From: an uncultured Prevotellaceae bacterium
Lineage (GTDB): Bacteria > Bacteroidota > Bacteroidia > Bacteroidales > Bacteroidaceae
Length of the DNA: 47,052 nucleotides
Assembly (NCBI GenBank): GCA_947174565.1
Contig: CAMWJL010000007.1
Span: 1 to 47,052 of the forward strand
Direction of reading: 5' to 3'
In this document: positions 1,234 to 29,104 of the stretch, piece by piece
Layout of the letters: each line of letters begins with the position of its first letter
How positions within the stretch are numbered: the first letter of the stretch is position 1
Program-made: the position numbers and the translations under genes
The notes under the pieces: generated by a model
Told to the model about the DNA's origin: nothing
Database searches by the model: none
What the model saw: only the letters and a program-made list of their open reading frames with translations

Positions 1234-1306
1234 AAATACTTCCTTTCTTGGATAAATGTGTAAATAATTCTTTTGTCCTCCCCCTCCTCTTGTCCTCATC
1301 ACCATG

Positions 1307-1337
1307 CAAAGATAAGCAGTCTTTGTCAGAATCACAA
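1307..1337 (-). promoter_or_regulatory. Bacteroidetes-type promoter for the GH30-like gene
   Basis: On the minus strand TATCTTTG (1314-1307) matches the -7 consensus TAnnTTTG. TTG at 1337-1335 lies exactly 20 bp upstream. Transcription would begin near 1300, giving a leader of about 65 nt. Confidence 0.7.
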
Positions 1338-1424
1338 GGATTCTTGCAAATTTGTCCTCGGGCAGGAAGGTCAGACAGCGGTCTCAACACGCCTCCGTGT
1401 TCAGTGCGCTTTCACAGCCTCTAA

Positions 1425-1491
1425 ATCGGAGTCCCCGACTCCGACCGACCGATATCCCCGACTCCGATGGGTCGATGTCGGGGACTCCGAT
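1425..1491. repeat. Triple palindromic intergenic element A (23-bp period)
   Basis: The octamer GACTCCGA occurs at 1437, 1460 and 1483, exactly 23 bp apart. Its complement TCGGAGTC is at 1426, so the first unit is a perfect 8-3-8 palindrome. The outer 15-mers ATCGGAGTCCCCGAC (1425-1439) and GTCGGGGACTCCGAT (1477-1491) are perfect inverted repeats. The architecture of three units at 23-bp spacing is the same as at 17457-17521 and 28854-28918, although the sequence differs. Confidence 0.85.
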
Positions 1492-1644
1492 TTTGGGGTA
1501 CTTTCAGAGAGGATTTTTCAGCACCCTCAATTTGCTCATTTCACGCCCCCGTTTCCTCTTGCGGATGCTGCTGCCAACAGGGGCGGTGGATGCACGCTCC
1601 ATGCTTCCCTCCAATCCTGATGCGTCCATTTTGTAGATGGTTTG

Positions 1645-17436: not shown

Positions 17437-17456
17437 GTCCTTCAACCACCGCAAAA

Positions 17457-17521
17457 GGGGTCTGAGTCACACCCTGTTTGGGGTCTGACTCAGACCTCTC
17501 CAAGGGTGTGACTCAGACCCC
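17457..17521. repeat. Triple palindromic intergenic element B (23-bp period)
   Basis: There are three 18-bp units: GGGGTCTGAGTCACACCC (17457), GGGGTCTGACTCAGACCT (17480) and GGGTGTGACTCAGACCCC (17504). Unit 3 is the exact reverse complement of unit 1; unit 2 contains the perfect palindrome GGTCTGA-C-TCAGACC. The central TGA trinucleotides start at 17463, 17486 and 17509, exactly 23 bp apart. It lies between two terminators in a convergent gap. Confidence 0.9.
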
Positions 17522-17540
17522 ATTTGTGGCACTTATTGGC

Positions 17541-17587
17541 AATAGAAAAAGCTGGGGTATAACTTTAGGTTACTTCCCCAGCTTTGC
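17541..17587 (-). terminator. Terminator after the GH43 gene
   Basis: A 10-bp perfect stem AAAGCTGGGG (17548-17557) / CCCCAGCTTT (17576-17585). On the minus strand it is followed by TTTTTCTATT. It lies 36 bp past the GH43 stop. Confidence 0.82.
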
Positions 17588-17622
17588 TGTTGGTTCGCCA
17601 CGGTATGGCGAATGGATGGCGA

Positions 17623-26213: not shown

Positions 26214-26288
26214 CAAAAAATATAATGCTGTCACAAATACGGTCTTTATTAAAACCACTGTCATACGGAACTGTAGCGATGTCAGCAT
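26214..26288 (-). terminator. Possible terminator after the beta-CASP gene
   Basis: ATGCTGTCA (26225-26233) pairs with TGTCAGCAT (26280-26288) with one mismatch, around a 46-nt loop. The minus strand then reads TATATTTTTTG. The large loop makes this weak. Confidence 0.35.
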
Positions 26289-26310
26289 CTTGCCCACCCA
26301 CTATTTATCA

Positions 26311-27606
26311 TCAAATAAATTCTATGTCGATATTGCTTAACGTATGATTTTTCGTTATAACCTTCTTCTGCAGGTGGGAAGGAATGCCAATAGAAGAAAA
26401 ATCTGTATCTTTCTCCTTATGAATGGGTAGAATGGCAAGCCTTGGATTAACCAATTCGCAAATTCTACATAGTACATCTGTTGTAGCATGTCCGCTTGTA
26501 TGGAGAGACTCTATGGTTGCAAAGCGTTTTTGTAAACGTATATAATCTTCCTTTTTTGTATCCTCCCTATTGATATAACCATCCCACATGGAATAGATGA
26601 GAATCGGTCTTTCTGATGTGGGCAGTATCGAAAAGATTTGGTCTAAAAGCGAGTGGAATTTTTCGCTACTCCGTACAAACATGGTAAAACCGTTGCTAAT
26701 CATCCAGTTCTTTAATTTGATGTTCCTGTCTTCGTACATATATATAGTGCCGAATTTAAAGCAAGTGGATTCTTTTCCCGTTGAAGACCTTTTCTGTCCT
26801 GCTGTTGTTGAAAAAATATCAAGTAGATCTTTTTGATATTTATCTGCTAACAATGGGCGATAGGAAGGCATTTGCCGCGTGGCATTTTTGAAACTGGCAA
26901 GCCGTTCCATATCGGTGGATGAGCAATGGACAAATACATATTTGTGTTCTTTCATAAGCTCGGCTGCTTTTCGTGACAACTCCGCTTCGGTTAGTATAGC
27001 CTCGTTTTTTCGGGCGAGCATGGTTCCTTCGATGATTAACACATCGACTTGTCCAATATATTTTTGAATAGTAGGAAGTAACCCTTTGCTCAAATAGCCA
27101 TGCCTACGGAAATCACCTGTGTGCAGGATGCGTTTCCCTTCCGCTTCTATCAGGAACATATAGGCATCATAAGCCGAATGGCTGACAAAATAGGGAGTCA
27201 CTATGATGTCCCCGAAATGCAGCGTCTGCTTCTCATGAAAAGTGTGCAAGTTAGAAGCGATGTTTAGCGCATGTTGGTATTTCTGTTTACCTGCTTCGTC
27301 TGGCAGGTGAGATAATTGCTCATATTTTCTGCAAACAACTTGTTTCGCCACTTCACCAATGTATTGCGGAATATCATTCGGTACATGATGAAACAGCCCT
27401 ATGTGGTCACCATGGTAATGAGTATAAAGTATGGCAGAACAACCCTTTGTGATTTCTGCAACAGCCAAGTCGTCATCATAGACATCCTTGTTCTTTGTGC
27501 TGTTAGGCAAAATATGCCCCAGGTCTATAATGATATTGTCTTTCGCTGTTGATATGCGAGTAATCTGTCCGCCAATCTGTTCTGCGCGGTGAATCGTTAT
27601 TTGCAT
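26311..27606 (-). CDS. MBL-fold beta-CASP nuclease, RNase J-like
   Basis: 431 residues. Metallo-beta-lactamase motifs: THYHGDHIG (about 62-70), SHSAYDAYMF (142-151) and HTGDFR (162-167). Beta-CASP features follow: IIEGTML (191-197), HTSGHATTD (369-377, motif B type) and LPIHKEKD (393-400, motif C type). Only nucleic-acid-cutting MBL proteins such as RNase J and CPSF73 have this combination. It is shorter than RNase J (about 550) and seems to lack the C-terminal domain. The gene overlaps the upstream PD-(D/E)XK-like gene by 10 nt, and both are AT-richer than their neighbours (near 40% GC on sampled lines, against about 60% in a sampled priA line). A second-function nuclease acquired with its partner is inferred; a housekeeping RNase J role is less likely. 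Confidence 0.85.
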   Translation of the reverse strand: MQITIHRAEQIGGQITRISTAKDNIIIDLGHILPNSTKNKDVYDDDLAVAEITKGCSAILYTHYHGDHIGLFHHVPNDIPQYIGEVAKQVVCRKYEQLSHLPDEAGKQKYQHALNIASNLHTFHEKQTLHFGDIIVTPYFVSHSAYDAYMFLIEAEGKRILHTGDFRRHGYLSKGLLPTIQKYIGQVDVLIIEGTMLARKNEAILTEAELSRKAAELMKEHKYVFVHCSSTDMERLASFKNATRQMPSYRPLLADKYQKDLLDIFSTTAGQKRSSTGKESTCFKFGTIYMYEDRNIKLKNWMISNGFTMFVRSSEKFHSLLDQIFSILPTSERPILIYSMWDGYINREDTKKEDYIRLQKRFATIESLHTSGHATTDVLCRICELVNPRLAILPIHKEKDTDFSSIGIPSHLQKKVITKNHTLSNIDIEFI

Positions 27607-28559
27607 AAGTCGGGATAATCTACAATGAGCGTATCAAAATCTGTTCTTTCTTTCAGGTTTTCCATATAGGTGATTCGTTCTTCTCTCCCTTTTGTGAGTT
27701 TTTCGTAAGTATTTACAATCAGTAGTTCGGGCTTCAGGGAAACCTCTTCAATTTCAGTTTCACCATTCCACAAGTTGGTGCGTTTCTTGATTCGCAATAA
27801 TTTTGAGTAATAGTCTTTCAACTCTTTCGTGTGCTTGTTGATGAATTTACAGTATTCTGTCATTTGCTCAATGATTTCCGGCTCTCCTTCTTTGCTTCTT
27901 AGTCGGGGGTCTGTTATCAGCTTTAATTCAATGAATACCAACTTCTTGTTCTCTCTCAGTTCCACTAAATCGAACCGAATGAGTTCTTTCTCTCCCGTCC
28001 GATAGGCGAACTCTGAATCAATGTAACGATTTGGAAAACATAGTTTCAACTCTCCTTGTACCCATTTTTCACTGGATGTATATACCCCTTTTCGTTGGTT
28101 CGCTTCTTTTTTAGGGGAAAGTTTGTGATACTCTTCGCGGATTTTCCCTTTTATGTCTTCTATGCCATCCTTGCTCAGAAGTTGCTTAATGCAGTCTTGG
28201 TAAGTGGCTGTTTCATCGGATTCACCTAAATATTTTTGATGTGTTTCGGTTGCAATTTCTCCTCCTGTCCATCGAACCAAAGCCACATTGCCGCCGTAAT
28301 AATATACATTGGCATAGTTATCCTTGCGTATTTCCACATATAGTTCCTTGTCATCCAATAGGTTCTTCCACCATTGCGGAGGGTTGTTCTCTAACACTGA
28401 CCATAATAGAAAATCCTCATTTAATGCACCGAAATGTCCATTTGTTTTTTGTTTAAGCATATTCATAATGTTTTCATTTATTTGTGTTTCACTGAGTTTC
28501 TGCTTCGTTGGAGTTATTTTTAACTTCCGAAGTTTTACTCCCTGTTTGTGTGCATCCAT
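27597..28559 (-). CDS. PD-(D/E)XK nuclease-like protein of unknown role
   Basis: 320 residues; I do not recognise the family by name. Residues about 165-240 fit a PD-(D/E)XK fold: VQGELKL, then RFDLVELRENKK (Asp197), VFIELKL (Glu211, Lys213) and a following QMTEYCKFI (Gln232, Tyr236), like the Q-x-x-x-Y element of several nuclease families. The N-terminal half (about 1-150) is charged, with a WW-containing segment (NNPPQWWKNLL) and YYYGGNVALVRW, possibly a recognition domain. It is the first gene of a two-gene unit whose second member is a beta-CASP nuclease. A strong promoter and a 5' hairpin precede it. Low GC suggests horizontal gain. Confidence 0.72.
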   Translation of the reverse strand: MDAHKQGVKLRKLKITPTKQKLSETQINENIMNMLKQKTNGHFGALNEDFLLWSVLENNPPQWWKNLLDDKELYVEIRKDNYANVYYYGGNVALVRWTGGEIATETHQKYLGESDETATYQDCIKQLLSKDGIEDIKGKIREEYHKLSPKKEANQRKGVYTSSEKWVQGELKLCFPNRYIDSEFAYRTGEKELIRFDLVELRENKKLVFIELKLITDPRLRSKEGEPEIIEQMTEYCKFINKHTKELKDYYSKLLRIKKRTNLWNGETEIEEVSLKPELLIVNTYEKLTKGREERITYMENLKERTDFDTLIVDYPDLCK

Positions 28560-28604
28560 AGTGGCTTCAAATTTAGAGGATTGATTACTGTTTTTTCTCC
28601 TGAC

Positions 28605-28657
28605 TATTCCTGAAACGTGTTGGCGAAAGCCGAATAGGTCTCCCCTGTTTCAGAATA
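28605..28657 (-). promoter_or_regulatory. Hairpin at the 5' end of the nuclease/beta-CASP transcript
   Basis: On the minus strand TATTCTGAAAC (28657-28647) pairs with GTTTCAGGAATA (28616-28605), 11 bp with one bulged G. Inside is a small GGC-TTTC-GCC hairpin. The predicted start of transcription (about 28652) falls at the foot of the stem, so the mRNA would begin with this fold. Confidence 0.5.
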
Positions 28658-28688
28658 CAAAGTTAGTAAAAAAGCCTTAACCTGTCAA
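28658..28688 (-). promoter_or_regulatory. Strong promoter for the nuclease/beta-CASP pair
   Basis: Minus strand TTGACA begins at 28688 and TAACTTTG (28665-28658) follows 20 bp after TTG. Both elements match the Bacteroidetes consensus fully. The leader is about 95 nt. Confidence 0.78.
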
Positions 28689-28853
28689 GAACGCGGTGAT
28701 TAAATTTTTCTCGCATACTGCTCATTGGCACTCATTGACCGCTGTTGCCCCCCCCGTCTGTTCGTAGCGAATATCTACGATTTTGTTGCTTGCTTGTGCC
28801 ATGATTGGCATTATTCTTGTGTTTCCTTTTTTTGAATCGAAATGTCCTCAAAA

Positions 28854-28918
28854 GGGGAGTGAGTCACACCCTTTCCGGGGAGTGAGTCACACCCTATTTG
28901 AGGTCTGAGTCACTCCCC
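28854..28918. repeat. Triple palindromic intergenic element C (23-bp period)
   Basis: GGGGAGTGAGTCACACCC occurs identically at 28854-28871 and 28877-28894. A third, inverted variant GAGGTCTGAGTCACTCCCC spans 28900-28918. The central TGAGTCA starts at 28860, 28883 and 28906, exactly 23 bp apart. It shares the TGAGTCACACCC core with element B. Confidence 0.9.
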
Positions 28919-29104
28919 TTTTGAGGTGCTAAAGGGACGTTTTTCGGGTCTTGGAACATCGTATGGCATACATCCGAAACATGGTTCAGATAATGCCTTG
29001 GAGTCTTGTAATCTTTGTCGTGGATACACTTTCTTGCTTTTCGTGTTCGCTCCCCCACCGCAGCGCGTTTCTCTGATTATGTTGATTGTCAGATGATTTA
29101 TGAG

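What the first reader, a model, noticed from the sequence alone, without database searches (positions are those of the whole stretch)
28854..28918. Element C: three palindromic units with an exact 23-bp period, sharing architecture with two other intergenic loci
The core TGAGTCA starts at 28860, 28883 and 28906. Two units are identical 18-mers and the third is an inverted variant. The same layout (three ~18-19 bp partly palindromic units, exact 23-bp spacing, last copy inverted or partly so) occurs at 1425-1491 and 17457-17521, with different base sequence. Units resemble each other within a locus more than between loci, as if each array is homogenised locally or must keep its geometry while its sequence drifts. 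23 bp is a little over two helical turns. It could be a multimeric protein-binding platform, a non-autonomous repeat family or a structured RNA. I know of no named family with this form.
Basis: partly seen in the sequence, partly recalled or inferred. Interest (0 to 1): 0.78.

Follow-up and report, generated by a model that had tools for sequence, protein, structure and literature searches.

The report
Scrambled triple-palindrome DNA repeats
A short block of three mirror-image DNA units with fixed spacing is scattered between genes across a group of gut bacteria; its pieces keep flipping around while its layout and half-sites stay fixed, and related species carry different letters in the same layout, which suggests that something in the cell reads it.

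Summary
Element C (28846-28926, with terminal inverted repeats) is one of 25 places of its family (type C) in this genome; 17449-17529 is another. 1414-1498 belongs to a larger sister family (type A, at least 102 loci). A sequence-blind detector finds such arrays about once per 11-17 kb in this genus; in other Bacteroidales families it found only five hits, which read as low-complexity repeats.

Spacing is near-exact within a genome but not universal: type C steps are 23 bp here (46 of 49) and 24 bp in several relatives.

In two sister species, 11 of 12 elements of one contig sit at the same sites. Arms hardly change (3 of 384 bases; flanks 9.0%). Central bases flip G/C in 5 of 24 units, and one 29-bp segment is cleanly inverted. 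All 31 three-unit 24-bp elements hold exactly two TC half-sites, in varying order. Between more distant species one site can carry a different family.

Best reading: a REPIN/MITE-like dispersed palindromic family, scrambled by template switching and probably kept as a three-dyad protein-binding platform. No RAYT transposase was detected in the genome, and no binding partner is known. Inversions are well supported; function is inferred.

The parts
28846..28926 (.). Element C, type-C triple-palindrome element, 81 bp, intergenic, about 330 bp upstream of mraZ
28846..28857 (.). Left end of element C (CCTCAAAAGGGG), part of the terminal inverted repeat
   Evidence: inverted repeat I7, 28846-28870 with 28902-28926
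28855..28871 (+). Palindromic unit 1 (core TGAGTCA at 28860)
28878..28894 (+). Palindromic unit 2 (core at 28883)
28901..28917 (-). Palindromic unit 3, inverted variant (core at 28906)
28915..28926 (.). Right end of element C (CCCCTTTTGAGG), part of the terminal inverted repeat
17449..17529 (.). Second type-C element of the window, between convergent genes
17458..17520 (.). Its three palindromic units, 23 bp apart
1414..1498 (+). Type-A triple-palindrome element (GTCCCCGAC cores), 23 bp period
1426..1490 (.). Its three palindromic units (core centres 1435, 1458, 1481)
1303..1413 (+). Degenerate type-A leader module, approximate limits, recognisable in most type-A copies
1499..1520 (+). Type-A tail module (CTTTCnGAGGGG-like), approximate limits

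Best explanation
Element C belongs to a dispersed, mostly intergenic family of triple-palindrome elements that runs through one genus of gut/rumen Bacteroidales. Each element has conserved ends and three imperfect palindromes one fixed step apart (23 bp here). Shown: the family, its near-fixed geometry, its conserved positions in a sister-species pair, the strong conservation of palindrome arms there, and small inversions that permute half-sites and flip cores and spacers. Inferred: the inversions come from DNA polymerase template switching between the short inverted arms during replication. Inferred and less certain: the array is held by selection as six half-sites (three dyads, a little over two helical turns apart) for an unidentified dimeric DNA-binding protein that does not care which way a unit faces. 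Inferred: new families spread by insertion (type A carries a leader and tail) and replace older families in place, so that letters change over a whole genome while layout and sites persist.
For: Family and geometry: 25 type-C places in this genome; type A at 102 forward and 102 reverse places (most listed loci appear on both strands, so at least 102 loci), every listed row spanning 55 bases, 0 control matches; detector 41 hits per 438 kb here, 24 per 400 kb in 14 other genomes of the genus, 5 per 400 kb in four genomes of other families, 0 in 50 kb of E. coli. Positions: on one collinear contig pair, 11 of 12 G010 elements have an element at the same place in G011. Conservation: in the 8 orthologous 24-bp type-C pairs of that contig, arms differ at 3 of 384 bases, spacers 10 of 112, flanks 531 of 5917; arm against flank p = 9e-12, arm against spacer p = 4e-5. 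A second set of 6 pairs, chosen from known hits and sharing one pair with the first, gives 0 of 288 against 538 of 5048. Inversions: the central base differs in 5 of 24 units, always G to C or C to G, against 25 of 2717 flank G/C sites (p = 4e-6); one pair differs at 14 of 82 bases but at 3 after inverting one 29-bp segment, equalled by 0 of 200 random controls; all 15 G010 and 16 G011 three-unit loci hold exactly two TC half-sites, in 7 and 6 arrangements, with 24 bp in 62 of 62 steps; type-A copies show the same kind of permutation. Replacement: at one aligned site G000 has type A without a recognisable leader and G010 has 24-bp type C (site 2; same distance to the next conserved block); upstream of mraZ G000 has type C while G010 and G011 have a TGTNACA array at almost the same distance from the next conserved block. 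Template switching is reported to homogenise inverted-repeat arms and invert the spacer (PMC8604942, abstract read).
Against: No binding protein was found or tested. Arm conservation could come from gene conversion among many copies rather than from selection. Pairs had to be detectable in both genomes, which favours intact copies. The 31 loci include many G010/G011 orthologues and are not independent. Unit number is not absolute: one locus has a single unit in G010 where G011 appears to have three (near a contig end, not aligned), and one type-C locus here has four. A genome can hold several families with different periods, which would need several binders or a tolerant one. Two type-A copies of this genome have no counterpart in G010/G011, so mobility is part of the story. 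At site 3 the two species' elements share a gap but do not align base for base, and the mraZ-site flanks align poorly.
Confidence: 0.5

Rival explanations
1. A purely selfish non-autonomous element (MITE/REPIN-like) moved by an unidentified transposase; arms look conserved because copies are homogenised by gene conversion, with no host function.
For: High copy number, intergenic bias, conserved ends, type A with leader and tail, and a type-A copy in this genome at a place where both sister species lack one (site 1).
Against: On the collinear contig most copies of the sister pair sit at the same site (11 of 12) and cannot be recent jumps, yet their arms are about ten times less diverged than their flanks while the spacers inside the same element are not. 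Conversion confined to one locus should still leave some concerted arm changes; none is seen in those 8 pairs. No PF01797 match in this genome. Conversion among all copies of a genome is not excluded.
Confidence: 0.3
2. RNA-level function: transcribed hairpins acting as two-way terminators or mRNA 3' end protectors.
For: Strong hairpin potential; on the G010 contig 6 of 10 placeable elements lie between convergent genes, against 9 of 35 gaps of 200 bp or more.
Against: No clear orientation bias for type A (relative to the leader: 9 and 4 in tandem pairs, 6 divergent, 5 convergent of 24 placeable; leader orientation was ambiguous for some copies) or in other genus members (8 tandem, 6 divergent, 3 convergent of 17); no Rfam match in the window; only 1 of 15 and 2 of 16 loci have all units matched at the variable pair, although a permutation could give it.
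Confidence: 0.12
3. Programmed inversion by a site-specific recombinase acting on the units.
For: Clean inversions with ends inside palindromes.
Against: Segments of 1, 3 and about 29 bp are shorter than usual invertase substrates (general knowledge); flips occur at every scale and in families with different cores, as expected of template switching. No recombinase was linked to the elements, but none was searched for systematically.
Confidence: 0.05
4. An ordinary tandem minisatellite of the BrickBuilt type.
For: BrickBuilt of Porphyromonas gingivalis also has 23-nt units, intergenic sites, a leader and a tail (PMC4596501, section 5).
Against: BrickBuilt has 1 to 22.8 direct repeats; here the count is three in 31 of 33 type-C clusters of G010/G011 (the other two: a one-unit locus and an isolated weak match), and units occur in both orientations.
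Confidence: 0.03

Closest known systems
REP / BIME / REPIN repeats (with RAYT, TnpA-REP)
   Same: Short imperfect palindromes, dispersed, intergenic, many copies per genome, lineage-specific sequences, units in both orientations (REP features partly from passages of PMC3733652, partly recalled).
   Different: Three units at a strict 23 or 24 bp step with conserved outer ends; no PF01797 (RAYT-type) match in this genome; no GTAG in 33 of 33 23-bp elements of the sample.
BrickBuilt MITE of Porphyromonas gingivalis (PMC4596501)
   Same: 23-nt repeating unit, intergenic, leader and tail modules, Bacteroidales host.
   Different: BrickBuilt has direct repeats in variable number (1 to 22.8) and IS5-like ends; here usually three dyads, inverted units and different ends. 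No sequence comparison was possible because the BrickBuilt repeat itself was not available to me.
CGTC-tagged palindromic repeats (PMC3733652)
   Same: Short palindromic repeats, reported in five phyla including Bacteroidetes, said to lack a dedicated transposase (passages read).
   Different: CGTC end tag; CGTC or GACG occurs anywhere in only 2 of 33 23-bp elements of the sample.
Inverted-repeat template switching (PMC8604942)
   Same: Arm homogenisation and spacer inversion at short inverted repeats (abstract read).
   Different: A mutational process described in yeast, not an element family; here it would act repeatedly on one dispersed bacterial family.

Membership tests
REP/REPIN with RAYT | Dispersed, high-copy, intergenic imperfect palindromes | tested here: met
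REP/REPIN with RAYT | RAYT (Y1 transposase, PF01797) in the genome | tested here: not met
   No match at E<=1e-3 in G000 (assembly 98% complete). Of the 17 type-C-bearing genomes, 11 have none, 5 have weak partial matches, and G020 has one strong near full-length match
REP/REPIN with RAYT | GTAG (or CGTC) tag beside the palindrome | tested here: not met
   GTAG/CTAC in 0 and CGTC/GACG in 2 of 33 23-bp elements of the G000 sample
REP/REPIN with RAYT | Two REPs in inverted orientation form the mobile unit (recalled definition of REPIN) | tested here: not met
   Three units in 31 of 33 type-C clusters of G010/G011 and in 26 of 32 type-A motif clusters here; of the other six, one is the window copy with a mismatched middle unit, one is cut by a contig end and four are isolated single matches
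BrickBuilt MITE | 23-nt direct repeats in variable number | tested here: not met
   against the description in PMC4596501
BrickBuilt MITE | IS5-like terminal inverted repeats (GAGACCTTTGCA type) | tested here: not met
   Ends here are CCTC(A/T)AAA ... TTT(A/T)GAGG; compared by eye with Table 2 of PMC4596501
MITE (general) | Short, non-coding, inverted-repeat ends, many copies | tested here: met
MITE (general) | Target-site duplication / empty site | tested here: inconclusive
   One type-A copy absent from two sister species (site 1), but flanks have diverged and no duplication could be defined
MITE (general) | Mobilising transposase with matching ends | not tested
   No systematic search of transposases with matching ends
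Known structured RNA | Match to an Rfam family | tested here: not met
   0 matches at gathering threshold over the whole window
Multi-dyad protein-binding site | A protein that binds it | not testable with these tools

The most novel reading that the evidence does not exclude
A genome-wide chromosomal system in which some 100-200 fixed intergenic stations carry a three-dyad array read by a rapidly evolving DNA-binding protein. Stations and geometry persist across species while the recognition sequence, and even the step (23 or 24 bp), are replaced over the whole genome in concert, and orientation is continually scrambled without loss.
Probability: 0.25. Interest if true: 0.85.

Novelty: new variant of a known kind. 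Interest (0 to 1): 0.6.

Why it matters
It offers a natural series in which geometry is held constant while sequence turns over, so selection, template-switch mutation and family replacement can be separated. It asks directly whether bacteria carry dispersed binding arrays whose sequence co-evolves with a reader, and it gives an unusually clear record of small inversions in bacterial DNA. If the elements are only selfish, they would still be a high-copy palindromic family in a genome without a detectable RAYT.

Tried and rejected
RAYT partner: PF01797 searched in 61 genomes (own and relatives) and in the 45 genomes of the genus; no match in the own genome. Known RNA: no Rfam match. Orientation-dependent role: no clear bias for type A; a convergent excess on one contig only. 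The first palindrome scan was too strict (four positions at period 23 and three at 21 at its looser threshold) and was replaced by the detector. Composite transposon: two type-C copies 4 kb apart on one contig share a duplicated 220-bp block (93.6% identical); the ORFs between them were only listed, not identified. The two genes beside element C gave an MBL-fold/RNase J-like match and no match, and no PADLOC match. Literature: seven searches showed no title or abstract start that describes this family; the library holds open-licence papers only. Gene-context counts rest on a home-made ORF caller, not on curated annotation.

Full report
What is there. Element C spans 28846-28926. Three imperfect palindromes with TGAGTCA cores lie exactly 23 bp apart, and the ends are inverted repeats CCTCAAAAGGGG/CCCCTTTTGAGG. 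The window holds two more such elements, 17449-17529 and 1414-1498, and a sequence-blind detector finds these three and nothing else in it. Element C lies between mraZ (PF02381) and two genes on the opposite strand.

A family, in fact several. BLAST with element C finds 25 places in the 2.81 Mb genome (extracted). Over 25 loci with two or more TGASTCA cores, 46 of 49 steps are 23 bp and 3 are 24; one locus has four cores and two are cut by contig ends. The 1414-1498 element is another family, type A, with GTC-CCC-GAC cores: 28 loci in a 438-kb sample (the window plus 20 stretches) and at least 102 loci by a strict pattern, every listed row spanning exactly 55 bases (the list was cut short). 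Most type-A copies have a degenerate leader of about 110 bp and a short tail. The genome also holds rarer arrays with 21 and 22 bp steps. Of the 28 type-A loci 24 had a called gene on each side, and none of these lay inside a called gene; elsewhere 1 of 12 (G010 contig) and 3 of 21 (other genus members) fell inside a called ORF, by a simple ORF caller.

Distribution. In 400 kb from 14 other genomes of the genus the detector finds 24 hits, 17 at 23 bp; a few of other periods are simple or coding repeats. In 400 kb from four genomes of other families of the order it finds 5 hits that read as low-complexity repeats, and in 50 kb of E. coli none. Three shuffles of each set gave 0 (own genome), 0 (genus), 1 (other families) and 0 (E. 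coli). Cores differ strikingly between genomes, while the frame CCTC(A/T)AAA - three units - TTT(A/T)GAGG largely stays. The type-C core pattern is present in 17 of 45 genus genomes, own included. In the listed rows G043 is at 23 bp throughout and G007 with one exception; G022, G031, G014, G036 and G013 are at 24 bp with few exceptions. The list was truncated and shows no rows for the other ten.

Orthologous sites. On a collinear contig pair (about 179 kb aligned) 11 of 12 G010 elements have a G011 counterpart; the twelfth lies in an unaligned gap. Of 15 G011 detections, 11 are matched, one is a second array beside a matched site and three are unmatched: two beyond the aligned part, and one whose G010 counterpart scored below the threshold. 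In the eight 24-bp type-C pairs, arms differ at 3 of 384 bases, spacers at 10 of 112, ends at 18 of 160 and flanks at 531 of 5917. The flank alignment of one pair in each set is poor (151 of 744 and 204 of 809). Pairs had to be detectable in both genomes, which favours intact copies, but only one element lacked a partner. A second, hit-selected set of six pairs (one shared with the first) gives 0 of 288 against 538 of 5048.

Inversions. The central base differs in 5 of 24 units, always G to C or C to G, against 25 of 2717 G/C flank sites. In one pair a 29-bp middle segment is inverted: 14 mismatches fall to 3, equalled by 0 of 200 random-substitution controls. All 15 and 16 three-unit type-C loci of G010 and G011 hold exactly two TC half-sites in 7 and 6 orders, with 24 bp in 62 of 62 steps; one further cluster in each genome had a single unit or unit-like match. 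Many loci of the two genomes are orthologous, so these are not 31 independent cases. Type-A copies show the same permutation of half-sites, cores and spacers, and some appear inverted as a whole against their leader (leader orientation is ambiguous in several rows).

Turnover. For G010/G011 elements that fall between blocks aligned to the G000 sample I read six sites, and all six have a G000 element in the same gap (three of them and one spanning alignment recovered by script). The G010/G011 stretches had mostly been picked for type-C hits; the G000 sample had not been picked for elements. At site 2 the alignment places leaderless type A on 24-bp type C. At sites 5, 6 and 7, 23-bp and 24-bp type C correspond. 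Upstream of mraZ (site 4) type C corresponds to a TGTNACA array. Site 3 is only a gap-level match. The reverse also occurs: two type-A copies of G000 have no counterpart. Upstream of mraZ in further relatives the same interval carries yet other cores in some and no array in others.

Interpretation. Template switching between short inverted repeats would give both arm homogenisation and spacer inversion (PMC8604942, abstract). It does not by itself explain why arms of fixed copies diverge so little: conversion within a locus would still let concerted changes accumulate, and none is seen in the eight pairs. Conversion among all copies of the genome could lower short-term divergence and is not excluded. 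I therefore favour selection on the arms, read as dyads by a protein that is indifferent to orientation, at moderate confidence. An RNA hairpin is less likely because arms within units are often mismatched at the variable pair and clear orientation bias is absent for type A. A pure transposon is possible, and mobility of type A is likely, but no RAYT was found in this genome.

Known kinds. The nearest are REP/REPIN repeats (recalled, and from passages of PMC3733652; the REPIN papers were seen only as a listing) and BrickBuilt of P. gingivalis (PMC4596501: outline, first part, sections 5 and 8 and part 1 of section 7; PMC5771137 passages). Neither membership test is passed. No description of this family was seen in the listings of seven searches of an open-licence library.

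Noticed in passing
L063:13181-13242, L069:5659-5721, L071:42-106 and 17550-17614, L075:64-126: AT-rich arrays of about four TTCATAAnTTATGAA units at 21 bp, five loci in the 438-kb sample, all outside called genes; another array family with its own period.
   Followed up: partly
L060:12719-12788, L077:5265-5335, L064 near 6477: Arrays at 22 bp with AGTACT- or AGTCCT-type hairpins; the first two are one family.
   Followed up: partly
L124:2640-2900, L118:5690, L126:5484, L115:5566: 22-bp arrays upstream of mraZ in more distant Prevotella-like MAGs, not of the triple form.
   Followed up: no
window 26221-29103: Two genes (MBL-fold/RNase J-like 26311-27606 and an unknown 27597-28559) lie in an interval that is only about 0.3 kb in two sister species; weak coding signal, no PADLOC match.
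   Followed up: partly
G000:C2:1-55, C155:13-65, C168 end; G007:C28:25-77; G043:C104:3-55: Several contigs begin or end in an element, so these repeats may break assemblies.
   Followed up: no
L209:2417 and L201:3628 (G010) against L068:1509-1584 (G000): Two G010 elements on different contigs correspond to one G000 element, each matching one flank, as if a rearrangement had occurred at the element.
   Followed up: no
L041, contig C33 near 6898 and 10878: A 220-bp block holding a type-C element and a promoter-like stretch is duplicated 4 kb apart; the copies differ in a core flip and in a spacer.
   Followed up: partly
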